Source of the DNA: Verrucomicrobiia bacterium | GTDB taxonomy: Bacteria > Verrucomicrobiota > Verrucomicrobiia > Limisphaerales > JADLHS01 | Length of the DNA stretch: 64,000 nt | Assembly (NCBI GenBank): GCA_026125285.1 | Contig: JAHCLO010000006.1 | Location: forward strand, 62,001-126,000 | Direction: 5' to 3' | In this document: in pieces, positions 27,314-49,290 of the stretch | Layout: every line of letters begins with the position of its first letter | Position numbering within the stretch: position 1 is the first letter of the stretch | Program-made: the position numbers and the translations under genes | Notes under the pieces: model-generated | What the model was told of the DNA's origin: nothing | Database searches by the model: none | What the model saw: only the letters and a program-made list of their open reading frames with translations

Positions 27314-27327
27314 AGCTTAGTTGCGCG

Positions 27328-30153: not shown

Positions 30154-30728
30154 GGCGGACAGACGGCGAGCAATTTACCGTTGGCGGTCAGCACTTCGAG
30201 GCCTCCCGTGATATGATCGCCGTCGTCGGTCATCAGTTTCAGATTATGATGAAGACAGTTCTCAGTGATGAGCTGGTCGTTCCAATCGGTGGACCCGGAA
30301 CCAAAATCCGTGAGCATTTTCCCGACATTCCATTTGGAAAATGGATGATCGAGCGCCTGGGCGTCGGCCATGATCTGGGTGGCGATGGATTGAACGGATT
30401 TGGCCGCCGGCGGGTAATCGGCTGATTGGCGAAAATCCTTCCGCTTCGCATACTTCCTACCGTAACCAGGTGGATCAATGAGCTTCCACTCATCGTCGAG
30501 CAAGCGATTGATGACCTCGCCTAGAACGATGGGATCAATGAAAGCCTTGGCTCCGCTCGCATGGAGCTTTCCCCAAGCTGTGGAGTAAAGGGAAACCTTG
30601 GCCTTCAGCCAATGAGGATAAGCGGCAGACGCTGGCGAATACAAAAACAACCAGATGTTGGCATCCGGGAGCACCTTGTCCGCCGGGGTGAAGGCGTGGG
30701 CCGCAACATTAAACGCTTTGTTCTTCAT
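30150..30728 (-). CDS. PIN-domain nuclease (VapC-like)
   Basis: 192 residues. PIN acidic residues can be seen: Asp in LPDANIWLFLYS (about 22), Glu in VLGEVINRLL (about 70), and the pair DWNDQLI (about 148) and LMTDDGDH (about 166). These would bind Mg/Mn for single-stranded RNA cleavage. No VapB-like antitoxin precedes it; the upstream gene encodes a STAS-like protein instead and overlaps its start by 20 bases. Its presence between STAS-like and methylase genes makes it an operon component rather than a stray toxin. Confidence 0.75.
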   Translation of the reverse strand: MKNKAFNVAAHAFTPADKVLPDANIWLFLYSPASAAYPHWLKAKVSLYSTAWGKLHASGAKAFIDPIVLGEVINRLLDDEWKLIDPPGYGRKYAKRKDFRQSADYPPAAKSVQSIATQIMADAQALDHPFSKWNVGKMLTDFGSGSTDWNDQLITENCLHHNLKLMTDDGDHITGGLEVLTANGKLLAVCPP

Positions 30729-31074
30729 TGGGAAAGTCCTCGGAAACAGATTCCTCCATGCGGCTGCGGTTTTGGAAATAGGCCTTCGACCACTGAATGG
30801 ACTTGTCGAGCGCCGGCTGGAACGCGTCGCGGAGATTGGTCACCTCCAACAATTCGGTGATTTTCTCCTCCGAAATGTCGCCGTAAAGCTTGCCGACGGA
30901 CGCATTGAGAAAGGCGGTGATGACCATGGTGATGCCATCGAAGGACAGTTGCACCTTTTGACCGGCCCTGAGCAGGGGGCAAACCTCCTTGAAAACACGT
31001 TCGCCGTCGTCGGCGTCCACCGCGCGCGGGCTGTTCACAAGGTCGGCGACCCGGATTAAAATTTGTTCACTCAT
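30709..31074 (-). CDS. STAS-like DUF4325 protein
   Basis: 121 residues. The core KVQLSFDGITMVITAFLNASVGKLYG resembles the DUF4325 STAS-like fold, including the S/N-containing loop that in SpoIIAA-type anti-sigma antagonists is phosphorylated. The GHKL ATPase gene ends six bases upstream, so the pair mirrors a kinase/anti-anti-sigma switch. Function in this operon is inferred only. Confidence 0.72.
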   Translation of the reverse strand: MSEQILIRVADLVNSPRAVDADDGERVFKEVCPLLRAGQKVQLSFDGITMVITAFLNASVGKLYGDISEEKITELLEVTNLRDAFQPALDKSIQWSKAYFQNRSRMEESVSEDFPNEEQSV

Positions 31075-31080
31075 AAAAAA

Positions 31081-31932
31081 TCAGGTGTTCAGCGTTGGGC
31101 TGTCGGAAAATTGCCAATTGGCGGTATCCACCGCGACTGTGACCACCGTTGCCGGGAGCACATGGTCAAATTCTCTGAATTCTTCCGCTTCTGCATGAAA
31201 TTGCCAGAATGCCTGACCGCTGGCAATCTGGACTTGCCCCCGGTTGGCACAGATGAAGTCACGCAACAACTTGAGACCCACGCCGCCGGGCGTGTCGCGC
31301 TTGGTCGTGTTGCCCTCGACGAGCGCCCAGCGCAACGCGCGAATGGCCGGCCAGTTGATGTTGAAACGCTGATTCACCCGCTCGGGAATGGTCACGCCGG
31401 AATCGGCAATGGAAAGCACGAGGCGTTGCTGGTGGGGATAAAACTGTCCGCAAACGAAAACGCCGAGGCTGGAATCCGCGTGCGTTTCGGCGTTAATAAA
31501 AACTTCACCGAGGATTTGCAGGAACTGCAACGTGAAATCGCTGGTCATTTCCGGAAGCCCTTTGCTGGGCAGATGCAAATCGAGAAAATCGTAAAACAAC
31601 TTGATCTCCTTCGCGCTAAACCGGGTGTAGGGAACGGCAGTGCCGCTCAACGGGGCGGTGTCGGGATACCCGAAGCACCGGAGGAAGCCGTTTTTTTCCA
31701 GCACCGCCAGGGGCAGCGAGGGAACATCCACGATGGAAATCGTATTGGAGCGATCCCGGATGGTGTTGAGCACCGCGCCCAAAGGAGCGGCCATGTTCGG
31801 ATCAACGACCGAAAGCGCCGCCAGACTCACATCGAGCGTTCCGCCCGTGAGTCCGATGGCGGCGTCAGCCAAACTCGACAGGGCATTGAACCCATCGAAG
31901 CTGTTCAACAGATTGGGGAGGGAAATCTTCAT
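31081..31932 (-). CDS. GHKL-type ATPase/kinase, anti-sigma-factor-like
   Basis: 283 residues. The C-terminal half has the Bergerat ATP-binding elements: N-box LGEVFINAETHA (142-152), G1 box IADSGVTI (175-182) and G2 GGVGLKLL (216-223). No phospho-acceptor His domain or membrane segment is present, so it resembles a SpoIIAB/RsbW-like kinase rather than a sensor kinase. The N-terminal 130 residues contain SIVDVPSLPLAVLEKNGF, which is itself STAS-like. It sits between the helicase gene (40-base gap) and DUF4325. Confidence 0.75.
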   Translation of the reverse strand: MKISLPNLLNSFDGFNALSSLADAAIGLTGGTLDVSLAALSVVDPNMAAPLGAVLNTIRDRSNTISIVDVPSLPLAVLEKNGFLRCFGYPDTAPLSGTAVPYTRFSAKEIKLFYDFLDLHLPSKGLPEMTSDFTLQFLQILGEVFINAETHADSSLGVFVCGQFYPHQQRLVLSIADSGVTIPERVNQRFNINWPAIRALRWALVEGNTTKRDTPGGVGLKLLRDFICANRGQVQIASGQAFWQFHAEAEEFREFDHVLPATVVTVAVDTANWQFSDSPTLNT

Positions 31933-31971
31933 GACGATACCGGCGCGCTCATAATTCTGGCTCGGGCGTGA

Positions 31972-34900
31972 CTATTCGGGCGCGGTGGCACGAGCCAACA
32001 GGTCCGGGAGATCGTAATTGACGCTGGTGACGGCGAAGTCGGGTTCGCGCCGGAAGGGCTGGCGCACATAGCGCGGCTCGGCGGTGTCACCATCCACCGT
32101 GACGATGGCGAGGATAAAGTCTTCCGGTTTGTTCATCGCGGTCATGATTTCGTTGCGCGTGATGGTAACAGTATTCGCCCCGACTGCGCGACCCTTGACT
32201 TCAAGGAAACGCAGCTTGCCGGTGTTCGGAATCCGGGACTCGACATCGTAGCCGCGATTTTCCGAGCTGACATCCGCCGGCTCGAACCCCAGCCGCCGCT
32301 CGGCCGCCAGCACCGTCTGCATGGCGAGCAATTCGACCCGCCGCCGGACTTCGGCGTCGTGCGTGTTAGGCGGCGGCGTTTCGGAGAGCCGGGGCGTGAC
32401 GTCGCGCAAGGCGCGGGCGGACACGATGACCGCGCCGCCGAGAACGACAGGCGGCAGCGGGGAAAGCTGGGATTCGAGTTCGAGTTCGCGGAGACGACTT
32501 TGCAAGCGGGCCTGCAAATCGTCGGCACGCTGCTGCGCCTTGCCGGAGTTCAAACGCGCGTTGACCTGGCCGGCCTGTTCTTGAAGGCGGAGTTGCTGGG
32601 CACGGTGATCCCAATAATTGATCTCCTTGGTCAGCCGTTCGCGCACGGCGACGCGGGTGCGTTCAATCAGGTCGGTGCGGTGGTCGCGCACTTCCATGAT
32701 GTGGCGCGGGAGCAATTGGGCGATAGCGTAGGAAGTCGCCTTGGTCTCCAACTCCTGATTGAGCCACGGTTCGAGGAGCAAAGCTTCAAGGGCGGGAAGC
32801 TCTTCCGTTGTGGCGGGCCGGTAATCCAGATAGGGAGCATAGCCCGCCGGGGAGCAGCGGCCCTGGGCATCCACCTCGACGAACTGCATCTGGCGCGAGA
32901 TGACGCGGCGATTGCCGGCGCGATCGGTGCGGGCGTCCTGAATGGCGTGGTCGAGACAGAGCAAGGCGCGCGGGCCGGGGGCGGTGTCGCGATCATCCAC
33001 CAACACCGCGCCGCGCTTGAGTAGATCGCGATGACGTTCCAACAAAACATCTGACACCGACTGCAACAGCGGATGGCCGGGGCTGATGAACTCGGCAACG
33101 GGTTTGCCGGGCACGGCGATAAGATGTTTCTCGAAAGTGACGCGCTCGTAGCGGACGAGGACAGGATCGCCGACGCCGGTCTGGCGGTCACGTTGGCGCA
33201 AGACCGCCGGGACATGGCTGATCTCGAAGCGGCGCGGTTCACGCTCGCGCATCGTGCCGCCCAATTCATTGAAGGCGGCGAGAAAATAGGACTCGATGAA
33301 ATGCGGCTGCAAGCGCCGCGCCTCGATGCGTTCCATGCCCTCGCGGATGCGGCGGACTTTGGAGGCGTCCATGGAGTCGTGCGCCAACGCACGTTCCTCG
33401 ACGAGGTCGCGGAGCTTGTCGTGTTCCATCGCGTCTTCGACGATTTGAAAGAGACGGTCGCGGACGTCCTTGCGGTCACCGTAACGAATGGCCTCCATGA
33501 GCACTTCACGCAAGGGCCGGTTGTCGAAGGTGACCTTGCCGAGCACGTCGAAGACCTGTCCGCCGAGGGCGTCGCGTTCCTCGCTGAGTTTTTCGAGCAA
33601 CCGCAAATAGACCGCGCCCTCGCGCGTCTCGGCGGCGACGAGATTCCACAAATGGCAGACCTCGGTCTGCCCGATACGGTGGATGCGACCGAAGCGCTGT
33701 TCGAGGCGGTTGGGATTCCACGGTAAATCGTAGTTCACCATCAAGTGAGCGCGCTGAAGGTTGATGCCCTCGCCCGCCGCGTCGGTAGCCAACAAAACCT
33801 GGGTGTCTTTGTCCTGGGTAAAAAGTTCCTGCGCCTTGGTGCGCTCCTCGCGGCCCAAGCCGCCGTGAATCAGAACGACAGCCTCGGGTTTGCCGATGAG
33901 CGTGCGGATGTTCGTAGCCAGATAATTTAGTGTGTCACGGTGTTCGGTGAACAAGACGAGTTTGCGCCGATGGCCGTGGGCATCGAACATCTCCTGATTG
34001 TTTTGCAGCAGAGAAGAAAGTTCCTCCCACTTCCGGTCCTTGCCGCTGCGCCGGACTTCGAGAGCGAGGTTTTCCAGCCGGCGGAGGATGCCGATTTCCT
34101 TTTCGAGTTCCGCGATGGTCTGCGCCGCCGTGGCCTGATCAATGATCTGTTCCTCGGTGGCCTCGACTTCCACGTCCGGCGCGTCGTCGAGATCGTCTAT
34201 GTCGTCGCTGGAAAGAGTTGGGCCGACGCTTTCGAGCGGCACAGCCGCGCCACGGCGAAGGAGTTTTTCCTCGCTGAGACGTTTTTCGAGCCGTTCACGA
34301 CGACGACGAAGCGACTGGTAGATGGCTTCCGGGGACGAGGCGAGCCGGCGCTGCAATGAAGTGAGGGCAAAACCGATCGTGCCGCGCCGCCCATCGCTGT
34401 TGAGGCGGTCGGCGAGGTTGAACTGTTCCTGAACGTAATCGGTGACTTCCTTGTAGAGGCGGGCCTCGCCGTCCGAAAGCGTGTAATTCAGCGTATAGGC
34501 GACGCGTTCGGGGAACAGCGGCGTGCCGTCGAATTTGAGCAGGCGCTCCTTGACCATGCGCCGCATCATGTCACTGACGTCGGTCGTGTGAACGCCGTCG
34601 CGGAACTTTCCTTCGAAGCGGTCGCCATCAATCAGCGCCATGAAAAGCTGGAAATCCTCCTCCTTGCCGTTGTGCGGGGTGGCCGTCATCAGAAGGAAAT
34701 GACGGGTGATGCCGGAAAGCAGGCGGCCCAAGTGGTAACGCTTGGTATATTTGGCCTCCCCGCCAAAGAACGTGGCGGACATTTTGTGCGCCTCGTCGCA
34801 GACGATCAGATCCCAATCCGTATCCTTGAGCTTGGCCTGGACCTCCTCGTCCCGACTGAGTTTGTCGAGGCGGGCGATGCAGAGGGAGTTTTCACGAAAC

Positions 34901-35484
34901 CAATTGCCGGTGCGCGCGGCTTCCAGTTTGTCGTTGGTGGCAATGTCGAAAGGGAGATTGAATTTGCGCCAGAGTTCGTCCTGCCACTGCTCGACCAGGT
35001 TGCCGGGACTGACGACAAGGCAACGCTGAAGGTCGCCGCGAATGAGCAATTCCTTGATGAAGAGTCCGGCCATGATCGTCTTGCCCGCGCCCGGGTCGTC
35101 GGCCAGCAGGAAGCGCAACGGCTGACGCGGGAGCATGGACTCATACACGGCGGTAATCTGATGGGGCAACGGTTCAACGAGCGATGAATGAACCGCAACC
35201 AGGGGATCGAACAAATGGGCAAGCCGGATGCGATGCGCCTCGGACACGAGACGGAACACGCGGCCATCGCCATCAAAACTCCACGGGCGGCCGGCCGTCA
35301 GAATCTGCAAAGCGGATTCGCGGTCGCGAAAAAGGATTTCCGTGCCGACGCGGCCAGCGGTGTCCTTGTAAACGACCTCCAGCACGTCCGAGCCGTGCCA
35401 TTTGGAACTGAGCAACTCGGTGAGAGCATCAGGGATGATGCCCTTTACGAGTGTGCCAGTGGTGAGGTCTTCGAGCCGAGCCAT
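31972..35484 (-). CDS. SNF2-family helicase with C-terminal DUF3883
   Basis: 1170 residues, first gene of the operon. Walker A LADDPGAGKT near 130, DEAH box VCDEAHKM near 230, LLMTATPHNG near 260, motif V TDAAGEGINLQ and motif VI RFGRIHRIGQTE near 575-600. A coiled segment follows (rich in Arg/Glu, 640-760), and the last 120 residues contain a DUF3883 nuclease-like fold (ENRGYDVES ... RFLEVKGR) found in restriction proteins. Similar SNF2 helicases (DrmD-like) occur in DISARM and related methylase-based defence. The start at 35484 faces the QatB-like gene across a 354-base intergenic region. Confidence 0.88.
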   Translation of the reverse strand: MARLEDLTTGTLVKGIIPDALTELLSSKWHGSDVLEVVYKDTAGRVGTEILFRDRESALQILTAGRPWSFDGDGRVFRLVSEAHRIRLAHLFDPLVAVHSSLVEPLPHQITAVYESMLPRQPLRFLLADDPGAGKTIMAGLFIKELLIRGDLQRCLVVSPGNLVEQWQDELWRKFNLPFDIATNDKLEAARTGNWFRENSLCIARLDKLSRDEEVQAKLKDTDWDLIVCDEAHKMSATFFGGEAKYTKRYHLGRLLSGITRHFLLMTATPHNGKEEDFQLFMALIDGDRFEGKFRDGVHTTDVSDMMRRMVKERLLKFDGTPLFPERVAYTLNYTLSDGEARLYKEVTDYVQEQFNLADRLNSDGRRGTIGFALTSLQRRLASSPEAIYQSLRRRRERLEKRLSEEKLLRRGAAVPLESVGPTLSSDDIDDLDDAPDVEVEATEEQIIDQATAAQTIAELEKEIGILRRLENLALEVRRSGKDRKWEELSSLLQNNQEMFDAHGHRRKLVLFTEHRDTLNYLATNIRTLIGKPEAVVLIHGGLGREERTKAQELFTQDKDTQVLLATDAAGEGINLQRAHLMVNYDLPWNPNRLEQRFGRIHRIGQTEVCHLWNLVAAETREGAVYLRLLEKLSEERDALGGQVFDVLGKVTFDNRPLREVLMEAIRYGDRKDVRDRLFQIVEDAMEHDKLRDLVEERALAHDSMDASKVRRIREGMERIEARRLQPHFIESYFLAAFNELGGTMREREPRRFEISHVPAVLRQRDRQTGVGDPVLVRYERVTFEKHLIAVPGKPVAEFISPGHPLLQSVSDVLLERHRDLLKRGAVLVDDRDTAPGPRALLCLDHAIQDARTDRAGNRRVISRQMQFVEVDAQGRCSPAGYAPYLDYRPATTEELPALEALLLEPWLNQELETKATSYAIAQLLPRHIMEVRDHRTDLIERTRVAVRERLTKEINYWDHRAQQLRLQEQAGQVNARLNSGKAQQRADDLQARLQSRLRELELESQLSPLPPVVLGGAVIVSARALRDVTPRLSETPPPNTHDAEVRRRVELLAMQTVLAAERRLGFEPADVSSENRGYDVESRIPNTGKLRFLEVKGRAVGANTVTITRNEIMTAMNKPEDFILAIVTVDGDTAEPRYVRQPFRREPDFAVTSVNYDLPDLLARATAPE

Positions 35485-35838: not shown

Positions 35839-36624
35839 ATGGGCCACACCCGACTAGGAACATTGCCCGCGACGCGAAGCTGGAACGAAGTGGTCGGCTT
35901 GGTGGCGGAGGGGGCGGATGCGGCGCGGGTGGCGGAGGCGACGGCGAACGCCTGGCGGCTGGCGTTCGCGAAGGTGCAAGGGGACATCGGCTTCCGCGAG
36001 GCAATCTGGTGGATGACGCAACTGGGCGTGGCCGCCGCGCAGAAAAATCCGGTGGATCACCTGGCGTCGCTCGGACTGGAGATTGGAAAGAGTGAGTCGG
36101 TGGTCGAGGTCGCGATGGCGCTGGCGAACGCGATGGACGAGCGGATTGACGGCAGCGGGAAACGCTCGGACTTCGGCGAGCTGGCGGAGCGGTCATTGAT
36201 CGCGGTGGTGACGGAAAATTTGCAGGAGCGGATGCCGCCGCTGCTGCCGCCAAACGCCGACGATGTGAGATCGGCGCTGGGAAAACTGGGGAGCGTCAAG
36301 GAGTTCGGGCAGCTTTCGCGCAGTTTCTTCCAAAAGCTCACCAACGAGTGCCTGAATTATTTCCTGTCGAAAACGATGCCGGCCCAAGTGGGAGCGTCGC
36401 GCCGGTTTGCTACCGCCGGGCAACTGGAGGGATTTGAAAAGGCGCTGGCGACGCATTGCTGGGAGGCGTCGGAGATCGTGGAAAAATTCAGCGGCGAATG
36501 GCTGTCGAAGAATCGTTACGAGGGCGGTGGCAACATTGACCGGGAGACGGCGGAGAAATTCGGCTGGTTTTCGCTGCGGAAGATGCAGTTGGAACTGGAG
36601 ACCCGCGCACGGAAACATGGATAA
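35839..36624 (+). CDS. QatB-like partner of the QueC-like protein, N-terminal Met-Gly
   Basis: 261 residues, mainly helical, with no recognised domain. It is followed by the QueC-like gene in an 8-base overlap, so they are translated together. The product starts MGHTRLGTL: after Met removal an N-terminal Gly would be exposed. In QatABCD and type IV CBASS, QueC-like enzymes have been reported to conjugate a deazaguanine-type base to the N-terminal Gly of a partner, so this protein is my candidate substrate, analogous to QatB. Identity to QatB is not shown; it rests on size, position and the Gly. Confidence 0.55.
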   Translation: MGHTRLGTLPATRSWNEVVGLVAEGADAARVAEATANAWRLAFAKVQGDIGFREAIWWMTQLGVAAAQKNPVDHLASLGLEIGKSESVVEVAMALANAMDERIDGSGKRSDFGELAERSLIAVVTENLQERMPPLLPPNADDVRSALGKLGSVKEFGQLSRSFFQKLTNECLNYFLSKTMPAQVGASRRFATAGQLEGFEKALATHCWEASEIVEKFSGEWLSKNRYEGGGNIDRETAEKFGWFSLRKMQLELETRARKHG

Positions 36625-38836
36625 CCTTTGCATCATTCCATGCGGGGGGCAGTCGCCAATCAAAGGCGGACTGGACGGCGCGGTCGTGCTGCCGCTGAAC
36701 CTGTGGACGCCACAGAAGAACCGCCCGGACTACCTGCGGCTGGAACTGGAAGATTTGCACGGTAAGCTATTCAAGCCCGTGCCCAAGCAGTTCGAGGACC
36801 TGCTGGAAATCGCCACTTACGTTTATTGTGCGGACCAAGCAACGTCGCGCGGCGGGCTGGATGTGGACACGTTCGGCGGCCGGTGGCGGCGGCGGTTTCA
36901 ATTCCACATTCCCGTGCGCGAGCCGGATTTGTGGAACTCGGCGGAGATGCAGAAGGCGCTGGCGGACACGCTGGGATTCCTCTCGGACGATGTGTTTGAG
37001 TTCACGTTTACCGCCGCCAAGCACGCGCCGGGAATGCAGCACTACCTGCCGGGACTCAGGGACGATAATTTCCGCGGTGAACCACAGCAGGTGGTGATGT
37101 TCTCCGGCGGGCTAGATTCACTATCGGGCGCGGTGGAAGAGGCGGTGCGGTGCAAGCGCCGCCTGATGCTGGTGAACCATCGTCCGACGGACAAGCTGAA
37201 CAACGTGCATCGCCGACTGGAAGCGCTGCTGGCGGAAAAGGCGGGGAACTTTGCGCCGACCCATCTGCACGTTCACATCAACAAGAACAGCGATCTGAAC
37301 AAGAATTACACGCAGCGGACACGGTCGTTCCTCTACGTCGCCATCGGGGCGACGGTGGCGCAGATGCTCGGGCAGCGGAACGTGCGGTTTTACGAAAACG
37401 GCGTGGTGAGCCTGAACCTCCCGGTGTGCGCCCAAGTGCTGGGGTCGCGCGCGACGCGGACAACGCATCCGCGCGTCTTGCAGGACTACGGGAATGTGCT
37501 GGGGTTGGTGGCCGGCGAGAAATTCACTGTGGAGAACCCATTCATCTGGGAGACGAAGGGCGAAATCGTCGAGCGGATTGTCAAAGCGGATTGCGCGGAA
37601 TTGATCGGCCACTCGGTCAGTTGCGCGCACACCTTCAGTTTCTCGAACGAGCATCCGCACTGTGGCACATGCTCGCAGTGCATTGACCGGCGGTTCGGTG
37701 TCATTGCCGGCGGGGCGGAGGCGTTTGATCCCATCGCAGGGTATGCGACCGATATTTTCACGGGGTCAAGGCCGCAGGAAGAAGATCGCATGATGATGGC
37801 CTTGTATTTGGAGCGCGCGAAGCGCGTGGCCAACATCAAGGCGGCGTCCGACCTCATCACGCTGTTTCCGGAAGTGGTGCGCACGCTCAAATACCTGGGC
37901 GGATCACCGCTGGCAGCGGCAGAACAGGTGGTGGCGCTCCACAAGCGGCACGGCGGCGAGGTCAAGCGGGTGCTGGAGGAGATGTTGAAGCGCTACAGCG
38001 CGAAGATCGTTGACCGGAGCATCCCGAAGGATTGCCTGCTGCGAATCGTTTACGACTCCGGCCCGGCGGCGTCGCGGCCCGAGCCGGCCAAAAAAGTCCA
38101 GAAGGCGCAGGAAACGCCGCTGGCGGAGAAACAGGACGAGCGATGGGAGCGAGAGGAGTTGTCCAAGGACACCTTCCGCCTGGCCTACGGTCACAAGGCG
38201 TGGAGTCTGGTGTTTGCCGGCAAGCGGGATGTGCTAATTGATGAACGGGCGGTGAAGCTGGTCGAGCATCTACTCAAGAGTCCGCCGGACGAGCCGATTC
38301 ACGCGACGGAACTGGAAAAGTGCGTGGACGGGCATCCCGTGCTGGACGGTGTCGGCAGGATTGGGCAGCCAGAAGATTTCGGCCATGTGCCGGTGGCGCT
38401 GGGGTCGGTGGGCGGTGTCATTGAGGAAGCGTCGGGCCGGAAACTGGCGGGGAAAGACACGCTGCCGGCGTTGCGGGCGAAAGTCGCGGAACTGAAGGCG
38501 GCCAGTGAGGACGAGTTGCTGCCCGAAGAAGAGCGCGAGGATGCCCGGCAGGAATTGGCGGGTCTGCTGAAGGCACAGTCGCGGGGCGGGAAATTTGCGG
38601 ACGGCGCGAGCCGATCGGCAGAACGGGTGCGGAAGCAGATCAAGACTTTCATCAAGGAAATGAAGACGGCGAAGGGCAGCCGGGGGCAACCGAACATGGT
38701 TTTGCAGGCATTTGGAAAGCATCTGGAGGATCATTTGTGGATGCCATCGGTCGGAGCAAAGAATCGCATCGGCGCAGCGGGCAAGCCGGGATGTTTCACG
38801 TATGAGCCGCCCAAGGGAGTGCGCTGGCGCGACTAG
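36617..38836 (+). CDS. QatC-like QueC-family (7-cyano-7-deazaguanine synthase-like) protein with long C-terminal extension
   Basis: 739 residues from the ATG at 36617 (MDNLCIIPCGGQ); the frame is open 70 codons further but overlaps the partner gene. The PP-loop motif FSGGLDS is at 162-168 and a QueC-like zinc site (C...HCGTCSQC) at about 334-350. Ordinary QueC is about 230 residues and QatC about 400; here an N-terminal domain of about 150 and a C-terminal extension of about 300 are added. The latter has the pattern W-LVFAG...HLLKSP...HATELEKCVDG (about 530-575), like winged-helix domains of bacterial regulators, followed by a coiled coil. No queD/E/F gene is near, so a protein- or DNA-modifying role is more likely than queuosine synthesis. 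Confidence 0.75.
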   Translation: MDNLCIIPCGGQSPIKGGLDGAVVLPLNLWTPQKNRPDYLRLELEDLHGKLFKPVPKQFEDLLEIATYVYCADQATSRGGLDVDTFGGRWRRRFQFHIPVREPDLWNSAEMQKALADTLGFLSDDVFEFTFTAAKHAPGMQHYLPGLRDDNFRGEPQQVVMFSGGLDSLSGAVEEAVRCKRRLMLVNHRPTDKLNNVHRRLEALLAEKAGNFAPTHLHVHINKNSDLNKNYTQRTRSFLYVAIGATVAQMLGQRNVRFYENGVVSLNLPVCAQVLGSRATRTTHPRVLQDYGNVLGLVAGEKFTVENPFIWETKGEIVERIVKADCAELIGHSVSCAHTFSFSNEHPHCGTCSQCIDRRFGVIAGGAEAFDPIAGYATDIFTGSRPQEEDRMMMALYLERAKRVANIKAASDLITLFPEVVRTLKYLGGSPLAAAEQVVALHKRHGGEVKRVLEEMLKRYSAKIVDRSIPKDCLLRIVYDSGPAASRPEPAKKVQKAQETPLAEKQDERWEREELSKDTFRLAYGHKAWSLVFAGKRDVLIDERAVKLVEHLLKSPPDEPIHATELEKCVDGHPVLDGVGRIGQPEDFGHVPVALGSVGGVIEEASGRKLAGKDTLPALRAKVAELKAASEDELLPEEEREDARQELAGLLKAQSRGGKFADGASRSAERVRKQIKTFIKEMKTAKGSRGQPNMVLQAFGKHLEDHLWMPSVGAKNRIGAAGKPGCFTYEPPKGVRWRD

Positions 38837-38863
38837 ATTTCTTACCTAAACCTCACAAAAGAA

Positions 38864-38892
38864 CGCGAAGGATAAACCCTTCGCGTTTTTTT
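38864..38892 (+). terminator. Rho-independent terminator after the QueC-like gene
   Basis: CGCGAAGG at 38864-38871 pairs with CCTTCGCG at 38878-38885 around a six-base loop, followed by seven T's. It ends the QatB/QatC-like transcript before the phage-like region. Confidence 0.8.
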
Positions 38893-38937: not shown

Positions 38938-38988
38938 CATGCCTTATGCCGGGGCGAACGGTTCGTCACGGTGAAAACGAAACCGAAC

Positions 38989-39183
38989 ATGGCAGCGAAC
39001 AATCGAATGAAGGCGGCGCGAGTGCTGAAGGGCATCACCCAACTGCAACTCGCGGAACAGGTCGGCACGCGCGAGATCGAAATCTCGCGGATTGAAACCG
39101 GGCGCGTCACGCCCGACGTGGCGATGAAACAACGCATCGCCCTGGTGCTCGGCAAACCCACGTTTGAACTCTTCGACTGCTGA
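38989..39183 (+). CDS. XRE-family HTH regulator (phage-repressor-like)
   Basis: 64 residues from the ATG at 38989 (MAANNRMKAARV). The HTH is clear: KGITQLQLAEQVGTREIEISRIETGR. The frame remains open to 38893, but that part translates the operator repeats (GNDFSA twice), so I prefer the internal start. First gene of the phage-like region and possible master repressor. Confidence 0.75.
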   Translation: MAANNRMKAARVLKGITQLQLAEQVGTREIEISRIETGRVTPDVAMKQRIALVLGKPTFELFDC

Positions 39184-39202
39184 CTCCTTGCGGAGGGCCA
39201 CC

Positions 39203-39493
39203 ATGAAAAAAGGAGCAACAGTTCACCTCACCCCGGCCCTCTCCCCAGCGCGGAGAGGGAGTGAACCGGTCGTGGCGAGCGAAGGCTACCTGGACAAGGT
39301 GGCGGTCGCGAAGCGGCTGGGGGTGAAACCCAAGACGGTCGGCGAGTGGGCCAATCAAGGCAGGCTGCCGGCGTATCGGCTCGGACCTTACCTCCGTTTC
39401 AAGTGGGCGGAAGTGGAAGCGCATCTCGCCGCGACGTGCCGGGTGACAAGTCCATTCGCCGCCATGCCGCGCGGGTTATTGGGGGATTGCTGA
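39203..39493 (+). CDS. Excisionase/MerR-type HTH protein
   Basis: 96 residues from the ATG at 39203, which has CGGAGGG just before it. The helix-turn-helix YLDKVAVAKRLGVKPKTVGEWANQGRLPAYRL is a typical excisionase-family fold. The first 20 residues (VHLTPALSPARRGSEP) are the translation of a widespread palindromic repeat (39221-39266), so the original start may have been a GTG at about 39271, giving a protein of about 74 residues. Confidence 0.75.
   Translation: MKKGATVHLTPALSPARRGSEPVVASEGYLDKVAVAKRLGVKPKTVGEWANQGRLPAYRLGPYLRFKWAEVEAHLAATCRVTSPFAAMPRGLLGDC
39221..39266. repeat. REP-like nested palindrome inside the 5' end of the HTH gene
   Basis: Outer arms GTTCAC (39221-39226) and GTGAAC (39261-39266), inner arms CCCTCTCC (39237-39244) and GGAGAGGG (39252-39259). 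The sequence resembles the 'CACCCCGGCCCTCTCCCC' repetitive elements of many bacterial genomes. It is in frame with the gene. Confidence 0.65.
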
Positions 39494-39502
39494 AAGCTCA
39501 CA

Positions 39503-39515
39503 CGTGAATTTCACG
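39503..39515. promoter_or_regulatory. Palindrome upstream of the phage-like early genes
   Basis: CGTGAA-T-TTCACG is a perfect 6-bp palindrome 34 bases before the exonuclease start. It may be an operator for one of the two preceding HTH proteins. Confidence 0.35.
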
Positions 39516-39548
39516 GATTAACACAAACCAAAAACCACAGGAGAAAAA

Positions 39549-40187
39549 ATGAAGCACATCGTATTCGACATCGAAACCGTTCCGCAGGATGAGGCGAAAC
39601 TGCTCGCGCTCGCCCCGGAATTCACCGCCGCCGCGAACTTGAAAGACCCGGAGAAGATCGCGGCGGCCATCGCCAAGAAGCGCGCCGACTACCTCGCCGA
39701 TGCGGCGCTGAATTGGAAGACCGCTGAGGTCGTGCTGATCGGCGCGGGGGATGAAGCGGGCATCCAGTCGTTCACCGCCGGCACGGAAAAGGAACTCGTC
39801 GGCAACTTTCTCACGCTCCTGGGCGACGCGCTGGCCGATGGCGTGGCCGCTGGCGGGCACAACGTCAAGAGCTTCGACCTGCCGATGCTCATCAACCGCG
39901 CCCGCGTTCACGGGCTGAAAGTGCCCGCGACGGTTCTCGCGTTCTGGAAGGGGCGTCCGCAGTGGGCAGAAAATATCTTCGACACGCTGGAACTTCTGTC
40001 CTTCGGAAAATCGTTCGACGGCAACGGCGTCGAGGACGTAGCACGGGTCTTCGGCCTGCCGCCGAAGCTTGGTCACGGCGGCGATTTCCCGCTGCTGTGG
40101 CGCGCGGACCGCGACGGCGCAATTGCCTACAACCGGCGCGATGTGGAAATCGAAATCGAAATCGCCCGCATCTGCGGAGTGATTTAA
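39549..40187 (+). CDS. PolB-like 3'-5' exonuclease (DnaQ/RNase H fold)
   Basis: 212 residues. Exo I FDIETVPQDE near 6-15, Exo II GHNVKSFDLPML near 104, and Exo III YNRRDVEIE near 197 supply the four acidic residues of DEDDy exonucleases. These predicted PolB-like exonucleases occur in phage recombination cassettes. It is preceded by AGGAGAAAAA and starts the early operon with the ERF annealase. Confidence 0.85.
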   Translation: MKHIVFDIETVPQDEAKLLALAPEFTAAANLKDPEKIAAAIAKKRADYLADAALNWKTAEVVLIGAGDEAGIQSFTAGTEKELVGNFLTLLGDALADGVAAGGHNVKSFDLPMLINRARVHGLKVPATVLAFWKGRPQWAENIFDTLELLSFGKSFDGNGVEDVARVFGLPPKLGHGGDFPLLWRADRDGAIAYNRRDVEIEIEIARICGVI

Positions 40188-40226
40188 GTGCGAGCCGCAC
40201 AGGCCATCTCTCAAGGAGAACCAATT

Positions 40227-40694
40227 ATGACACGCTCTGAAACCATCACGCATCTGGCGACGGCGCTCGCCAAGGCACAGGCGGAAATGCCGGTCGCGGT
40301 GTTCGACGCAACGAATCCGTTTCTGAAATCGAAATACGCATCGCTCGGCGCGGTGATTCAAGCCAGCCGCCCGATTCTGGCGAAGCACAAGTTGAGTCTC
40401 GTGCAGTTCCCGATCTCGGACGCGAACGGCATCGGCGTGGAATCCATTCTCGCGCATGAGTCGGGCGAGTTCGTCGCGGAGCGCATCGTCATTCCGCTCA
40501 CCGAGGAAAAAGGGAAATCCAAGGTGCAATCCGCCGGCAGCACGCTGACGTATCTGCGCCGTTACTCGTGGGCTTCGATCCTCGGAATGTATTCGGATGA
40601 AGATTCGGACGGCAGTTCGCCGGTCCAGGCATTCACTCCCAAACCGGCAACGGCACTTCCGCCGCCTCCGATTCACAAACACAGCAACAACTAA
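40227..40694 (+). CDS. ERF-family single-strand annealing protein
   Basis: 155 residues from the ATG at 40227, with AAGGAGAA seven bases upstream. The ERF core is visible: NPFLKSKYASLGAVIQASRP and STLTYLRRYSWASILGM, followed by a Pro-rich tail. Works with the neighbouring exonuclease in annealing-type recombination, for genome circularisation or replication. Confidence 0.88.
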   Translation: MTRSETITHLATALAKAQAEMPVAVFDATNPFLKSKYASLGAVIQASRPILAKHKLSLVQFPISDANGIGVESILAHESGEFVAERIVIPLTEEKGKSKVQSAGSTLTYLRRYSWASILGMYSDEDSDGSSPVQAFTPKPATALPPPPIHKHSNN

Positions 40695-40708
40695 ACGAAA
40701 GGACTGAT

Positions 40709-41419
40709 ATGGAAATCCCTCAAGAGGGCAAATACGTCTGCAAGCTGAATGGCCAACTGGTCATTTACGAAGCATCCACCGGCTCACTCTGCGGCGCAGT
40801 GCCGTGCGTGATGGTGGAAACCGGGTTCACCTTCAAGCACACGCTCGTGCTCGTGAAGGCGGACGGAACAATCCAAACCAAAACCACGGACACGCTGAAA
40901 GCGGTGTTTGGTTGGGACGGCGCTGATCCGTTCTGGCTCATGGACAACTCGCTCGACGGTGGCGCGATGCGCGACGTGGAGTTCGAGATCGTTGGCGGGC
41001 CGGAGACGGGCGACAAGGGCGGGCAATACTTCAAGAGTCAGTGGCTCAATCCGCTGGGCGGCGGCATGAAGACGCCCGCGGCGGCAGACCGTCGCTCGGT
41101 GCTGGCGAAGTATGGCAGCAAGTTCCAGGCGTTGGCCGGTGTCGCAGCGAAAGCCGCACCCGCCGCGCCGAAAATCCCGACCGTTCCGAAAGCTGCGCCC
41201 GTTGCGCCGCCGCCAAGTGGCCCACCGCAAGGTGCGGCGACGATGGAGGAGGCGTGGGCAGCGCTGAACGAAGCGCAATCTGGCAAGGCCGCTGATGTCA
41301 TCGAGAAAGTCTGGTTCGACACCATTGCCCGGCTGTTCCCGAACAAATCCAACACGGACCTCAAGCCGCATGAGTGGGGCAAACTCAAGGCGGAGTTCAC
41401 CGACGACATCCCCATGTGA
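40709..41419 (+). CDS. Phage early protein, possibly ssDNA-binding
   Basis: 236 residues. The N-terminal 140 residues are beta-rich (KYVCKLNGQLVIYEAS ... FKHTLVLVKADGTIQTKTT) and could be an OB-like fold; the central AAPAAPKIPTVPKAAPVAPPPSGPP is a flexible linker; a C-terminal helical part ends acidic (KAEFTDDIPM), which is the type of tail seen in SSB proteins. Position after ERF supports an SSB-like role, but the family is not recognised. Confidence 0.55.
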   Translation: MEIPQEGKYVCKLNGQLVIYEASTGSLCGAVPCVMVETGFTFKHTLVLVKADGTIQTKTTDTLKAVFGWDGADPFWLMDNSLDGGAMRDVEFEIVGGPETGDKGGQYFKSQWLNPLGGGMKTPAAADRRSVLAKYGSKFQALAGVAAKAAPAAPKIPTVPKAAPVAPPPSGPPQGAATMEEAWAALNEAQSGKAADVIEKVWFDTIARLFPNKSNTDLKPHEWGKLKAEFTDDIPM

Positions 41420-41458
41420 GTGCAATCGCGCGGAAGTGACTAACGCGCTCCTTTCACC

Positions 41459-42406
41459 ATGACCAAGAAAATCAAACTTTCAGAGATCGTGACGGACGCC
41501 GGGACGCAAGTCCGGGCGGGCCTGAACGAAGCGACGGTGGCGGATTACGCCGAGGCCCTGGCCGACGGGGCGAAGTTTCCGCCGGTCATCGTGTTTCACG
41601 ATGGCAGCCGTCATATCGCCGCCGATGGCTTTCATCGCATCCATGCGGCGGTCAGGAACGGCGCGACGCAGATTGAATGTGACGTCCGCAAGGGCGGAAA
41701 ATCCGATGCGCTCAAGTTCGCGCTCGGGTGCAACGCGCATCACGGCCTGCGCCGAACCAACGCCGACAAGCGGCACGCGGTCGGGATGGCGCTCAAAGAA
41801 TTTCCGAAACTGTCGGACCGTGCCTTGGCGGAAATGTGCCTGGTAGGGCATCCGTTGGTCGCGGAGGTTCGGGCATCAACTGGAATTTCTTCCAGTTGTC
41901 CGCCGCCACCAACCCGAGTCGGTTTGGATGGCCGCGAGCGGAAATTGCCGCCGCCGCCGATGCAGCGACGGGCGTCAACGGACGCCAACGGCAGCGGGGA
42001 CAAGACTGCGGTGAAACCGCAGTTGCCGCCTCCGCCGTCGCAAGTGCTGGACGGCACGGGCTGGCCGATTCCCACACAACTTATTCCGCTCTGGCAGCGA
42101 ACGGATGAAGTCCAGGAAATGCTGACGGCTCTGAGTCGCGTCAAAGGCGCGCTGCGCGCCGCCCAGGAGAACAAGGACAAGTTGTTTGCCGAGGTGAACT
42201 TCTCGTCAGCGCTGTCGCAACTGGATCAGGCGTGGACGGACATCAAGACGGCGAAGCCGTTCGCCGTGTGCCCGACCTGTCAGGGCCAGCTTCCCGATAA
42301 ATGCACGCTCTGCAAGGGGCGCGGGCTGATTTCCGAACATCGCTGGAACACCTGCGTCACCCGCGAGGACAAGGAATTCCGCGCACGGGCGAAAGGGAGG
42401 AACTAA
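41459..42406 (+). CDS. ParB/Srx-fold protein with zinc-finger tail
   Basis: 315 residues. N-terminal ParB-like domain (KLSEIVTDAGTQVRAGLN, then DGFHRIHAAVRNGA) and a GCNAHHGLRRT segment typical of phage ParB-like proteins; a long low-complexity Pro-rich linker (about 145-205) and a DnaJ-like Cys cluster CPTCQGQ...CTLCKGRG near 278. Unrelated in detail to the two ParB-like proteins at 15.8-17.6 kb. Perhaps a regulator or replication factor. Confidence 0.7.
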   Translation: MTKKIKLSEIVTDAGTQVRAGLNEATVADYAEALADGAKFPPVIVFHDGSRHIAADGFHRIHAAVRNGATQIECDVRKGGKSDALKFALGCNAHHGLRRTNADKRHAVGMALKEFPKLSDRALAEMCLVGHPLVAEVRASTGISSSCPPPPTRVGLDGRERKLPPPPMQRRASTDANGSGDKTAVKPQLPPPPSQVLDGTGWPIPTQLIPLWQRTDEVQEMLTALSRVKGALRAAQENKDKLFAEVNFSSALSQLDQAWTDIKTAKPFAVCPTCQGQLPDKCTLCKGRGLISEHRWNTCVTREDKEFRARAKGRN

Positions 42407-42408
42407 CC

Positions 42409-42555
42409 ATGATCCGCAAACTCGACAAGCTCTGGTTTCGGCTGCTCGGCGTGGTGCATCGCTGGACGTTGCGGCGCGGGCAGGCGCATTGCCGCCGCGA
42501 AAAGCTGCGCCGCTTCCGGCGGCATCTGGCGTGGCAGAAAGCTCACCTCAATTGA
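42409..42555 (+). CDS. Small basic protein
   Basis: 48 residues, more than one third Arg/Lys (LRRGQAHCRREKLRRFRRHL), with AAAGGGAGG eight bases before the ATG. The stop lies one base before the helicase ATG, so translation is coupled. No family recognised. Confidence 0.6.
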   Translation: MIRKLDKLWFRLLGVVHRWTLRRGQAHCRREKLRRFRRHLAWQKAHLN

Positions 42556-42556
42556 T

Positions 42557-44218
42557 ATGAACCTGCGTCCTTATCAACTCGCCGCCTCTGACGCCATTTT
42601 CAAGGAATGGCAGGACAACGATTCCACGCTGGTCGTGATGCCAACGGGCGGCGGCAAGACCGTGCTGTTCGCCGATGTCATCCGGCGGGTGTTTCCTCGC
42701 CGGGCACTGGTCATCGCGCATCGCGAGGAATTGATTTTCCAGGCGCGCGACAAAATCCAGCGGGTCACCGGCCTCGCCGCCGACGTGGAGATGGGCGAAT
42801 ACCGGGCCGACGGCGGGCTGTTCGGTGCGTCGCGCGTGGTCGTCTCGACCATTCAAACGCAGTGCTCCGGCGGCGATGGCGGCGGGCGCATGTCCAAGTT
42901 CGATCCGCAACGCTTCGGCGTGCTCATCATTGACGAGGCGCACCATGCGACCTCGCCGACGTATCGGCGCGTGATTGATTACTACCGCACGAATCCGGCG
43001 TTGAAAGTCCTGGGCGTCACCGCCACGCCGGACCGCGCCGATGAGGAGGCGCTGGGGCAAGTATTTCAATCGGTCGCGTTCGACTACGAAGTGCTGGACG
43101 CGATCCACGACGGCTGGCTCGTGCCAATCGAGCAACAGATGGTGCATGTCGAGGGGCTGGACTATTCCAGCATCCGCACGACGGCGGGCGACTTGAACGG
43201 CGGCGACCTGGCCGCGGTGATGGAGGCCGAAAAGAATCTGCAACAGATGGCGTCGGCGTCGCTGACGATCATCGGTCAACGCCGCGCGCTGATGTTCACG
43301 GCGAGCGTGAAAGCAGCCGAGATGACGGCGGAAATCTTTAACCGGCATCGCGCGGAAATGGCGGCGTGGGTGTGCGGCAAGACGGACCGGGACGAGCGCC
43401 GGAAAGTGCTGGCAGATTTTGCCGCAGGCAAAATCCAGGTGGTGTGCAACTGCGGCGTGCTGACGGAAGGCTTCGATGATCCTGGCGTCGAGGTTGTCAT
43501 CATGGGTCGCCCGACGAAAAGCCGGTCGCTGTATTCGCAGATGGTCGGGCGCTCCACGCGACCGCTGCCCGGCGTGGTGGATGGGCCGGAGACGGCTGAC
43601 GAACGGCGCGCGGCGATTGCCGCGAGCGCGAAGCCGTCGTGCCTCGTCGTGGATTTCGTCGGCAACGCCGGGAAGCACAAGCTCGTCACGAGCGCGGACA
43701 TTCTCGGTGGCAAGGTCAGCGAGGAAGCCGTCGAGCTGGCCATGACGCGGGCGCTCAAGGCCGGCGGGCCGGTGAAGATGGCCGAAGCGTTGGACGAAGC
43801 GGAAGCGGAGTTGCACGAGCAAAAGCGATTGGCGGAGGCCGCGCGTCGGGCGCGGCTGGTGGCGACGGCGCGGTTCACGACGCAGTCGGTTGATCCGTTT
43901 GACGTGCTGCACCTCGACCCCGTGAAGCCGCGCGGCTGGGACAACGTGAAGCAACTCACGGAAAAGCAACGCTCGTTGCTCGCCAAGCAGGGCATCAATC
44001 CTGACAACCTTTCGTTCAGCCAAGGCAAACAACTGATCTCGGAAATCTTCCGGCGGTGGGATGGCAAGCTGTGTTCGTTCAAGCAGGCCAAGGTGCTGCG
44101 GAAATACGGCTACGGCACGGAGGTCAGCTTCGCGGAAGCGTCGGCGACGATTGATGCGCTCGCCAAGAATGGCTGGCGCAAGCCACTCGTGCCGCAAGGA
44201 GATCCATCATGGAACTGA
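42557..44218 (+). CDS. DEAD/DEAH-box helicase (phage replication type)
   Basis: 553 residues. Walker A MPTGGGKTVLF near 32, DEAH IIDEAHHATS near 121, motif III VTATPDRAD near 150, motif V NCGVLTEGFDDP near 300, motif VI SQMVGRSTRPL near 327. The C-terminus (SFKQAKVLRKYGYGTEVSFAEA) is a helical domain often found in phage SSL2-like helicases. Likely replication or recombination helicase of the element. Confidence 0.9.
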   Translation: MNLRPYQLAASDAIFKEWQDNDSTLVVMPTGGGKTVLFADVIRRVFPRRALVIAHREELIFQARDKIQRVTGLAADVEMGEYRADGGLFGASRVVVSTIQTQCSGGDGGGRMSKFDPQRFGVLIIDEAHHATSPTYRRVIDYYRTNPALKVLGVTATPDRADEEALGQVFQSVAFDYEVLDAIHDGWLVPIEQQMVHVEGLDYSSIRTTAGDLNGGDLAAVMEAEKNLQQMASASLTIIGQRRALMFTASVKAAEMTAEIFNRHRAEMAAWVCGKTDRDERRKVLADFAAGKIQVVCNCGVLTEGFDDPGVEVVIMGRPTKSRSLYSQMVGRSTRPLPGVVDGPETADERRAAIAASAKPSCLVVDFVGNAGKHKLVTSADILGGKVSEEAVELAMTRALKAGGPVKMAEALDEAEAELHEQKRLAEAARRARLVATARFTTQSVDPFDVLHLDPVKPRGWDNVKQLTEKQRSLLAKQGINPDNLSFSQGKQLISEIFRRWDGKLCSFKQAKVLRKYGYGTEVSFAEASATIDALAKNGWRKPLVPQGDPSWN

Positions 44219-44583
44219 GTCGCATCATCCCAAACGACACGTTGCGCCGGCTGAATCCGCACCTTTTTGGAACGCGGAGTCCGCAGCGCGGAGCGCGGAA
44301 TGGAGTGGTGCGGGAGGCGAGCCTCCACGAGGAGATTTTCGACGAGTGCCGGCGGCGCGGCTGGATCGCGTTGCACGGCAGCATGGCCGAACGGACATGC
44401 CGCACGCTGGGCGAGCCGGACTTTGTGATTCTGGCGGACGGTGGCCGCGTGCTGTTCGTGGAGTGCAAGTCGCGAAGCGGCAAACTCTCTCCCGCGCAAG
44501 CCGCGCTGAAACATCACGCCGCAAAACTCGGGCACACGGTGCATGTGCTGCGCTCAATGGAGGATTTTCTGAAACTGCTATGA
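44209..44583 (+). CDS. VRR-NUC domain nuclease
   Basis: 124 residues, overlapping the helicase by ten bases. The VRR-NUC (PD-DExK) pattern is clear: Glu in LHEEIFDECRRRGW, GEPDFVILADGG, FVECKSRSGKLSPAQ. Such proteins in phages resolve branched DNA or trim ends. The segment FGTRSPQRGARNGVV near residue 20 looks like an inserted repeat translation. Confidence 0.85.
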   Translation: MELSRIIPNDTLRRLNPHLFGTRSPQRGARNGVVREASLHEEIFDECRRRGWIALHGSMAERTCRTLGEPDFVILADGGRVLFVECKSRSGKLSPAQAALKHHAAKLGHTVHVLRSMEDFLKLL

Positions 44584-44912
44584 AACAAACAATCGAACCA
44601 ACAACGCCAACATCGGTCATGGAGAATGAACGCGGGCAATGGCTGGCGGCCATGCGCCGGGCCAGAACTGAACTGGGCATGACCCAAATGCAATTTGCCG
44701 CCGCCATCGGCATGTCGAAGGACGCCGTGGCTTCCTGGGAGTGTGGTCGCAACCGAATTTGCCGCACCAGCGCGTTGCGCATGAGCGTCCGGCTGCAATG
44801 CAACATCATCGCCGGGAACACCGACCCGGTCGGCGCTGAGGAACTGATTCAGGCGCGGGTCAGGGAATACGAACACAATCTGCGCCGCCGAATGGGGGTG
44901 CTCGCACCATGA
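44580..44912 (+). CDS. XRE-family HTH protein
   Basis: 110 residues from the ATG at 44580, which overlaps the previous stop. HTH: LGMTQMQFAAAIGMSKDAVASWECGRNRI. The C-terminal part is basic. A second regulator within the early operon, possibly controlling the early-to-late switch. It overlaps the primase gene by four bases. Confidence 0.75.
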   Translation: MKQTIEPTTPTSVMENERGQWLAAMRRARTELGMTQMQFAAAIGMSKDAVASWECGRNRICRTSALRMSVRLQCNIIAGNTDPVGAEELIQARVREYEHNLRRRMGVLAP

Positions 44913-45820: not shown

Positions 45821-46179
45821 AAAAACCCTCCGCTTACCTGCCGCTCTACGGCAACGACTTTTTCGAGGCCATCGCCGGTTATCCCGATGCCGTCGGCATG
45901 GGATACCTGCGCGCGCTCTGGCACTACTGGAATCACACCGGCTGCGACGGCCTGCCCGACGATGACGAATATCTGCGCCGCGTCTGTTGCTGCGATGCTT
46001 CGGCATGGGTGCGCACCAAAGGAATCATTTTCGACAACCGTTACCACTTCCGGCTGGAGGACGGCGTCTGGCATCAACCGCGCTGCCGGGAGGAGTGGCG
46101 GAAGTCCCAGGAAATTTTCGCGCAACGCTCGAAGGTCGGCAGCGCGGCGGCAAAGAAGCGGTGGGAAGGCCATGCCTGA
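45817..46179 (+). CDS. DUF1376 (YdaU-like) replication protein, probable frameshift near the 3' end
   Basis: 120 residues; the N-terminal DUF1376 pattern is clear (YLPLYGNDFFEAIAGYPDA, YLRALWHYW, GLPDDDEYLRRVC). Family members usually continue after KKRWEG with a tail rich in Ala/Met/Asp and Ser-Glu repeats. Here the frame stops after KKRWEGHA, but the +1 frame from 46172 reads PDAMPAAMPDALRH...SESESESKKS to 46261, exactly that kind of tail. So one base has probably been gained or lost near 46168-46172, or the frame is changed by recoding. The start overlaps the primase stop by four bases. Confidence 0.75.
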   Translation: MKKPSAYLPLYGNDFFEAIAGYPDAVGMGYLRALWHYWNHTGCDGLPDDDEYLRRVCCCDASAWVRTKGIIFDNRYHFRLEDGVWHQPRCREEWRKSQEIFAQRSKVGSAAAKKRWEGHA

Positions 46180-46261: not shown

Positions 46262-46280
46262 GTAAGAAAGGTATTAAGAT

Positions 46281-48639: not shown

Positions 48640-48740
48640 GAAATGGAGTCGAGAGGTCCACGACCTTTCGCGCGGTCTGGTGCGCGTAGCACCAGCGCCG
48701 GGGTTTGGGGACGACGCGAGTTCCCAACAGCGATGGCTGC

Positions 48741-49277: not shown

Positions 49278-49290
49278 GGTGTGATTCCTT

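What the first reader, a model, noticed from the sequence alone, without database searches (positions are those of the whole stretch)
35839..38836. Two-gene QueC-like modification pair with an exposed N-terminal glycine partner
The PP-loop (SGGLDS) and QueC zinc cluster occur in a 739-residue protein translated in an 8-base overlap with a 261-residue protein starting Met-Gly. QueC-like proteins in QatABCD and type IV CBASS are reported to attach a deazaguanine-type base to the N-terminal Gly of a partner. Here the QatA ATPase and QatD nuclease are absent and the QueC-like enzyme carries a 300-residue extension with a winged-helix-like segment. This could be a minimal or new variant in which a neighbouring operon provides the effectors.
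Basis: partly seen in the sequence, partly recalled or inferred. Interest (0 to 1): 0.8.

Follow-up and report, generated by a model that had tools for sequence, protein, structure and literature searches.

The report
Prophage QatBC pair with swappable tail
A two-gene cassette, carried mostly by bacterial viruses that live in their host's chromosome, encodes a QueC-type enzyme and a partner with a perfectly conserved exposed glycine; it is a large, so far unnamed branch of the QatB-QatC antiviral pair that has lost QatA and QatD and gained a swappable DNA-binding or DNA-cutting tail, so it can be used to ask what this enzyme-partner chemistry is for.

Summary
35839-36624 encodes a 261-aa protein (B) starting Met-Gly-His. 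It overlaps by 8 bases a 739-aa QatC relative (C, 36617-38836). QatA and QatD are absent. The pair is not a local oddity: 84 loci carry it, mostly proviral contigs. B precedes C wherever the DNA reaches, and Gly2 is invariant (78/78 readable N-termini, 44 non-redundant). C keeps the QatC-specific active site (SGGLDS, TRTTHP loop, zinc cysteines), and its model matches solved QatC. The C proteins form one well-supported clade apart from qatABCD QatC and score below NCBI's QatC cut-off. Beyond the QatC-like part, each C carries a C-terminal domain that differs between subgroups: OmpR-type winged helices, a DpnII/MboI-type nuclease with intact PD...ExK, or the longer window type (winged-helix-like in the model only). 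The usual place is between a phage integrase and the early replication genes; in 14 of 93 loci restriction-type defence genes lie nearby. Best reading: a prophage-carried, two-gene QatBC-type defence in which C modifies B's N-terminal glycine and the fused tail supplies DNA targeting or cutting.

The parts
35839..36624 (+). B: 261-aa all-alpha partner with a short disordered N-terminal tail, MGHTRLGTLPATRSW; QatB-like substrate candidate
35839..35883 (+). Gly2-tail of B (residues 1-15): MGH, L9-P10, W15; Gly2 invariant, His3, L9 and W15 at least 90% conserved
36617..36624 (+). 8-base overlap of B and C reading frames (translational coupling); overlaps of 4-17 bases in most relatives
36617..38836 (+). 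C: 739-aa QatC-type enzyme with an extra C-terminal domain
37103..37120 (+). SGGLDS pyrophosphate (PP-loop) motif of C, residues 163-168
37415..37468 (+). QatC-specific loop N267-H284 with TRTTHP (equivalent to QatC T278/T280, which replace the Tyr/Asp of QueC and Cap9)
37622..37681 (+). zinc-type cysteine cluster C336-x12-CGTCSQC (336, 349, 352, 355), followed by DRR
38144..38833 (+). extra C-terminal domain of C (residues about 510-739); predicted three-strand sheet, helices, inserted helical hairpin, last strand; winged-helix-like, inferred
38862..38887 (.). stem-loop with T-run between the pair and the phage regulator (11 pairs); scored on the - strand, but a T-run also follows it on the + strand
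38938..62424 (.). prophage genes next to the pair: Cro/CI-like regulator 38938-39183+, exonuclease 39549-40187+, Erf 40188-40694+, helicase 42557-44218+, primase 44909-45820+, terminase 46729-48639+, portal 54066-55538+, integrase 61399-62424-
   Evidence: integrase start by alignment
23951..35484 (-). divergent Hma-type (DUF499/DUF1156/SNF2) defence operon: DUF499 protein 23951-27313 (HmaC by resemblance to L082), HmaB 27328-30153, PIN-like, STAS-like and ATPase genes, HmaA 31972-35484
13678..13702 (.). left copy of a 25-nt exact repeat (only two copies in the genome), possible attachment site
62521..62545 (.). right copy of the 25-nt repeat, just upstream of the integrase

Best explanation
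The pair is a two-gene, mostly prophage-carried anti-phage module of the QatBC type. Shown here: C is a QatC relative with an intact QatC-type active site, always encoded directly after a Met-Gly-starting all-alpha partner, with a domain added at its C terminus that differs between subgroups. Inferred: methionine removal exposes Gly2 of B; B's short tail enters C's active site; C uses ATP to join a small carboxylate (a deazaguanine-type base, or a different one given the Thr residues) to that glycine; the BC complex is thereby armed or made to respond to infection; the fused C-terminal domain then acts on DNA, by binding it where it is a winged helix and by cutting it where it is a DpnII/MboI-type nuclease. 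The lysogen, and the prophage in it, are protected against other phages.
For: QatC kinship by profile, sequence and fold: PADLOC 48/48 members, best 2e-62; PDB QatC 1e-28 singly and 1.4e-55 as a profile; model matches QatC 9y01_B with E 2e-19 and TM 0.74 over its length. QatC-specific TRTTHP loop, PP-loop and zinc site conserved. Gly2 invariant. B resembles QatB by profile: score 44.7 against at most 18.7 for 40 shuffles and under 19 for 14 of 15 unrelated families. The Gly-Pro-Trp tail layout parallels QatB, where G2 and the Pro16/Trp18 stretch are needed for defence, and QatBC alone protects against lambda (PMC13279940). Nuclease tail with PD...E(S/T)K in L020, L137 and L138. Defence neighbours in 14 of 93 loci: Hma in the window and 5 bases before B in L082, type I restriction genes around the pair in L137, HsdR and a CD-NTase before it in L135.
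Against: No phage assay exists for this clade. Foldseek did not place B's model near QatB, so B = QatB rests on a weak profile match and the tail. Most loci have only phage genes nearby, and the pair holds a fixed place beside early phage genes, which would also suit a phage regulatory role. The window's own tail has no profile match to a known winged helix. What QatC joins to QatB has not been reconstituted even for the studied systems (PMC13279940).
Confidence: 0.62

Rival explanations
1. The pair is a lysogeny or early-gene control module of temperate phages. C modifies B, and the winged-helix tail binds phage operators, so the pair works as a switch or immunity regulator rather than as a defence against other phages.
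For: Fixed position between integrase and early replication genes in most proviral contigs; winged-helix tails of the OmpR type in two subgroups.
Against: Kinship to QatBC, a proven defence pair (PMC13279940); nuclease tail in three loci; presence inside a restriction operon (L137) or beside HsdR (L135); a separate Cro/CI-like regulator gene is already present beside the pair in the window.
Confidence: 0.2
2. Accessory part of the adjacent Hma-type system: BC modifies or licenses a component of the neighbouring methylase-helicase system, which is the effector.
For: Hma lies next to the pair in the window and directly before it in L082.
Against: Hma is absent from most loci; other neighbours are PLD/Snf2 with type IIG, PglX-like, type I restriction, or none. 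In the window Hma is divergent from the pair. QatBC needs no partner operon against lambda (PMC13279940).
Confidence: 0.06
3. C is a housekeeping QueC (preQ0 synthase) or other small-molecule enzyme and B is unrelated.
For: Pfam QueC match just over cut-off, 28.8 against 22 bits; no other QueC-family protein in this 95%-complete genome, while a QueD-type protein is present and QueE is only a weak match.
Against: The QueC model TIGR00364 is far below cut-off, 18.7 against 150.3; Thr residues replace the Tyr/Asp that read the base; strict pairing with B; no queDEF beside it; canonical QatC does not complement queC loss (PMC13329287).
Confidence: 0.02
4. Phage counter-defence: BC acts on host defence or on incoming DNA to protect the phage itself during infection.
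For: Position beside early genes and same direction in many contigs.
Against: Found in host restriction operons and on a Leptospira plasmid; its known relatives are defences.
Confidence: 0.1

Closest known systems
QatB-QatC of qatABCD (PMC13279940; PDB 9y01, 9zee, 9vlk)
   Same: Gene order B-C with adjoining or overlapping frames; QatC N-terminal extension plus QueC core; SGGxDS, TRTTHP loop, zinc cysteines; all-alpha partner with Met-Gly tail followed by Pro and Trp.
   Different: No QatA or QatD; B begins MGH with a tail of about 12 residues instead of MGTS with typically 30-90; Cys9-Gly motif at C's N terminus; extra, swappable C-terminal domain; separate clade; NCBIfam QatC score 188-224 against a cut-off of 280.
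Type IV CBASS Cap9 with its CD-NTase
   Same: QueC-family enzyme paired with a Met-Gly protein (model match to Cap9, E 5.7e-4).
   Different: C has Thr instead of the Tyr/Asp base-reading residues, QatC extensions, and a non-CD-NTase partner.
Queuosine QueC
   Same: PP-loop and zinc site, fold of the core.
   Different: Far below the QueC equivalog cut-off, no queDEF neighbours, 739 instead of about 220 aa.
Prophage- and operon-embedded restriction/defence cargo (Hma, PLD-Snf2, type I and IIG restriction)
   Same: Occupies the same places in 14 of 93 loci.
   Different: No sequence relation to B or C, apart from a nuclease tail of restriction type in three C proteins.

Membership tests
QatBC (qatABCD core) | C matches QatC models | tested here: met
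   PADLOC QatC 48/48; window 1.1e-50
QatBC (qatABCD core) | C passes the NCBIfam QatC equivalog cut-off (280 bits) | tested here: not met
   198 bits for C; 188-224 for relatives; 328-547 for two canonical QatC
QatBC (qatABCD core) | QatC fold with N-terminal extension, QueC core and C-terminal helices | tested here: met
   Foldseek 9y01_B, E 2.1e-19, TM 0.74 on QatC length
QatBC (qatABCD core) | SGGxDS, Thr pair T278/T280 in the QatC loop, zinc cysteines | tested here: met
   T282 invariant; T280 is Thr in 76 and Ser in 7 of 83; PP-loop 82/83, zinc motif 83/83
QatBC (qatABCD core) | Partner with Met-Gly N-terminus | tested here: met
   Gly2 78/78 readable, 44/44 non-redundant, 8/8 host copies
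QatBC (qatABCD core) | MGTS motif of QatB | tested here: not met
   MGH in 77 of 78, MGN once; canonical QatB MGTS in 9 of 9
QatBC (qatABCD core) | Partner homologous to QatB | tested here: inconclusive
   hhalign 44.7 (probability 80%) over 87 columns against controls mostly under 19; no Foldseek match
qatABCD system | QatA ATPase and QatD TatD nuclease in the operon | tested here: not met
   none in 84 loci; found beside canonical QatC in 9 loci
QatBC (qatABCD core) | Protects against phage; needs G2 and the QatC active site | not testable with these tools
   needs plaque assays
Type IV CBASS Cap9 | Tyr/Asp base-reading residues and CD-NTase partner | tested here: not met
   TRTTHP instead; B is all-alpha with no CD-NTase match
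Queuosine QueC | TIGR00364 above cut-off and queDEF neighbours | tested here: not met
   18.7 against 150.3 bits; neighbours are phage and defence genes

The most novel reading that the evidence does not exclude
The fused tail is the part of QatBC immunity that has been missing from the picture: in this clade, N-terminal conjugation on B gates a DNA-binding or DNA-cutting domain built into the QatC enzyme itself, so QatBC is a modular 'modify, then act on DNA' device whose output domain is swapped between winged helices and a restriction nuclease, and temperate phages are its main carriers.
Probability: 0.3. Interest if true: 0.82.

Novelty: new variant of a known kind. Interest (0 to 1): 0.62.

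Why it matters
QatBC is known to be enough for defence against some phages, but what its modification does and what stops the phage are open questions (PMC13279940). A large natural clade that dispenses with QatA and QatD and attaches a domain of recognisable type to QatC, including a nuclease with its catalytic motif, gives direct candidates for the output step. It also suggests that this protein-conjugation chemistry is spread by temperate phages under labels that automatic annotation misses ('hypothetical protein'), so the reach of QueC-type defence is probably underestimated.

Tried and rejected
Queuosine QueC: rejected. Type IV CBASS: rejected. Effectors from a neighbouring operon: rejected as a general rule because neighbours vary. 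B by fold search in PDB and BFVD: nothing, so QatB kinship was tested by profile comparison with shuffled and unrelated controls instead (one unrelated family reached 32.6, so it is not beyond doubt). PDB profile search with B alone: only chance matches. Window-type tail against solved structures: no convincing match, and no profile relation to the OmpR-type tails, so its winged-helix nature is left as inference. A second class-level genome search returned nearly the same sample. A Listeria phage record with a QatC match has an MGTN partner, QatC and a third gene next to a 553-aa gene, and was set aside.

Full report
Observation. The two frames are as described: 35839-36624 (+) gives 261 aa starting MGHTRLGTLPATRSW and 36617-38836 (+) gives 739 aa, overlapping by 8 bases. 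C contains SGGLDS (163-168) and the cysteines C336, C349, C352, C355. It matches PADLOC QatC (1.1e-50), NCBIfam QatC (198 bits, cut-off 280) and solved QatC (9vlk, 1e-28). B matches nothing in Pfam, NCBIfam, PADLOC or the PDB. The C gene is the only QueC-family protein found in this genome.

A family, not a single case. A profile of seven relatives found 154 relatives in the viral contig collection, of which the best 80 were kept as 79 distinct loci. With the window, L002, L020, L026 and L027 this gives 84 loci with C. B is found directly before C in 81; the other three contigs begin inside C. The frames overlap by 4-17 bases in most. No relative of QatA or QatD was found in any of the 84, although the same kind of query finds both beside canonical QatC in nine loci. 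In a class-wide sample, 11 of 384 genomes carried B. In all 78 B proteins with a readable N-terminus residue 2 is Gly; residue 3 is His in 77 and Asn in one, once two automatically chosen starts (L089, L108) are read at the MGH (or VGH) just inside them. The eight further host copies also start MGH. In the 44 non-redundant B proteins (<85% identical) G2 is one of four invariant columns.

C is a QatC. In 48 non-redundant C proteins (24-48% identical to the window's) the PP-loop, R234/R236, E260-N-G, N267, R281-T-T-H-P285, T313, the zinc cysteines and Y376 are invariant. Two threonines replace the Tyr/Asp that read the base in QueC and Cap9 (PMC13279940); both are kept (T282 invariant; T280 Thr in 76, Ser in 7 of 83). 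The AlphaFold2 model (mean pLDDT 83) matches QatC 9y01_B with E 2e-19 and TM 0.74 over QatC's length, ahead of QueC and Cap9. In a maximum-likelihood tree the 49 C proteins fall on one side of one branch (support 100/98) with nine qatABCD QatC proteins on the other. They score 188-224 bits with the NCBI QatC model, while two canonical ones score 328 and 547, which would explain labels such as 'hypothetical protein' on the Leptospira plasmid.

B is probably a distant QatB. Profile comparison with nine QatB proteins gives score 44.7, probability 80%, over 87 collinear columns; 40 column-shuffled controls reach at most 18.7, and 14 of 15 unrelated phage families stay under 19, one reaching 32.6. 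The B model is all helical with a low-confidence tail at 7-12, but Foldseek found no QatB. The tail keeps L9-P10 and W15; in QatB, G2 and the stretch holding Pro16 and Trp18 are needed for defence (PMC13279940). Homology is therefore likely, not proven.

The extra domain. After the QatC-like part each C has a tail whose type differs between subgroups: 32 of 52 non-redundant C proteins have the long window type, 8 and 5 form two OmpR-like groups (Pfam Trans_reg_C above cut-off in L114; 5 of 48 members at E<0.01; '...GYRLNP' ending), and a few are single types. L020 (Leptospira plasmid), L137 and L138 instead end in a DpnII/MboI-type nuclease domain (38.3, 28.3 and 37.9 bits, cut-off 27) with the motif PD...E(S/T)K in each. 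The window type also occurs as the end of three proteins without QueC (L037-L039), so it is a mobile domain; its winged-helix nature rests on predicted secondary structure only, since profile tests were negative.

Where it lives. In the window the pair is followed by a stem-loop with T-run and then prophage genes: Cro/CI-like regulator, exonuclease, Erf, helicase, primase, terminase, portal and integrase. A 25-nt exact repeat at 13678 and 62521 occurs nowhere else in the genome assembly and may mark an integrated element of 48.8 kb, although both copies lie upstream of related integrases (64% identical), so an integrase-linked site is also possible. Elsewhere the usual order is serine recombinase and DUF2924, then B-C, then sigma-like, exonuclease, AAA_24, DUF669, RusA, helicase and primase genes. 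In 14 of 93 loci, Hma, restriction or PLD/Snf2 genes lie within about 9 kb: Hma here and, 5 bases before B, in L082; PLD-Snf2 helicase with type IIG genes in L002 and L099; PglX-like in L071. In L137 the pair stands between HsdM, methylase and TdeIII genes and HsdR, and in L135 after HsdR and a DncV-like nucleotidyltransferase.

Mechanism. Established for relatives: QatB and QatC alone protect E. coli against lambda, and QatB Gly2 plus the QatC active site are needed (PMC13279940); Cap9 joins carboxy-deazaguanine to an N-terminal Gly (cited there). Inferred here: C conjugates a small carboxylate to B's Gly2, and the tail acts on DNA. The host has a QueD-type protein and a weak QueE match, so the deazaguanine precursor may be available, but the Thr pair leaves the substrate open. 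The nuclease tail and the restriction-operon settings favour defence; the fixed place beside early phage genes keeps a regulatory role possible.

Known versus new. The core, and probably the chemistry, are those of QatBC. New are the clade, its loss of QatA/QatD, the MGH tail, and the swappable C-terminal domain. No paper found in the library describes such a variant. I rate it a new variant of a known kind.

Noticed in passing
5378-11983: Four minus-strand genes that look like a Wadjet (Jet) type anti-plasmid operon, including a 1116-aa SMC-like protein; judged by eye only.
   Followed up: no
30150-31932: Three extra genes inside the Hma-type operon: PIN-like, STAS-like (DUF4325) and a HATPase/STAS protein, which look like a regulatory or toxin insert.
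   Followed up: partly
12211-13317 and 61399-62424: Two tyrosine recombinases 64% identical, each with one copy of the same 25-nt repeat upstream; possibly two elements using one attachment site.
   Followed up: partly
38897-38937: Perfect 20-nt tandem repeat CCGGAAACGATTTTTCCGCC (two copies) just before the phage regulator; possible operator.
   Followed up: no
L033:7559-9405: Another QatC with an MGTS partner of only 187 aa and no QatA or QatD, in a different operon (membrane protein, type IIG-like gene): a possible second independent reduction.
   Followed up: partly
L029:6234-8344: QatC-like protein and 216-aa neighbour beside HTH and PIN-like genes, branching nearest the new clade.
   Followed up: partly
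L137:5094-13897: Pair embedded between HsdM, methylase, TdeIII nuclease and HsdR genes; its C carries a DpnII/MboI nuclease tail.
   Followed up: yes
L138:6379-8243: C gene split by a frameshift in this genome, so decaying or an assembly error.
   Followed up: no
L037:7816-9186, L038:7208-8548, L039:7313-8734: Three proteins without QueC that end in the same domain as the window's C: a mobile domain with no Pfam match.
   Followed up: partly
G000 genome: No canonical QueC found in the 95%-complete host assembly although QueD (PF01242) is present and a weak QueE match exists.
   Followed up: partly
C residues 8-11 (window 36638-36649): A Cys9-Gly motif ('ILCGG/N') near C's N terminus, Cys9 invariant in 47 members, not seen in the canonical QatC starts inspected.
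   Followed up: no
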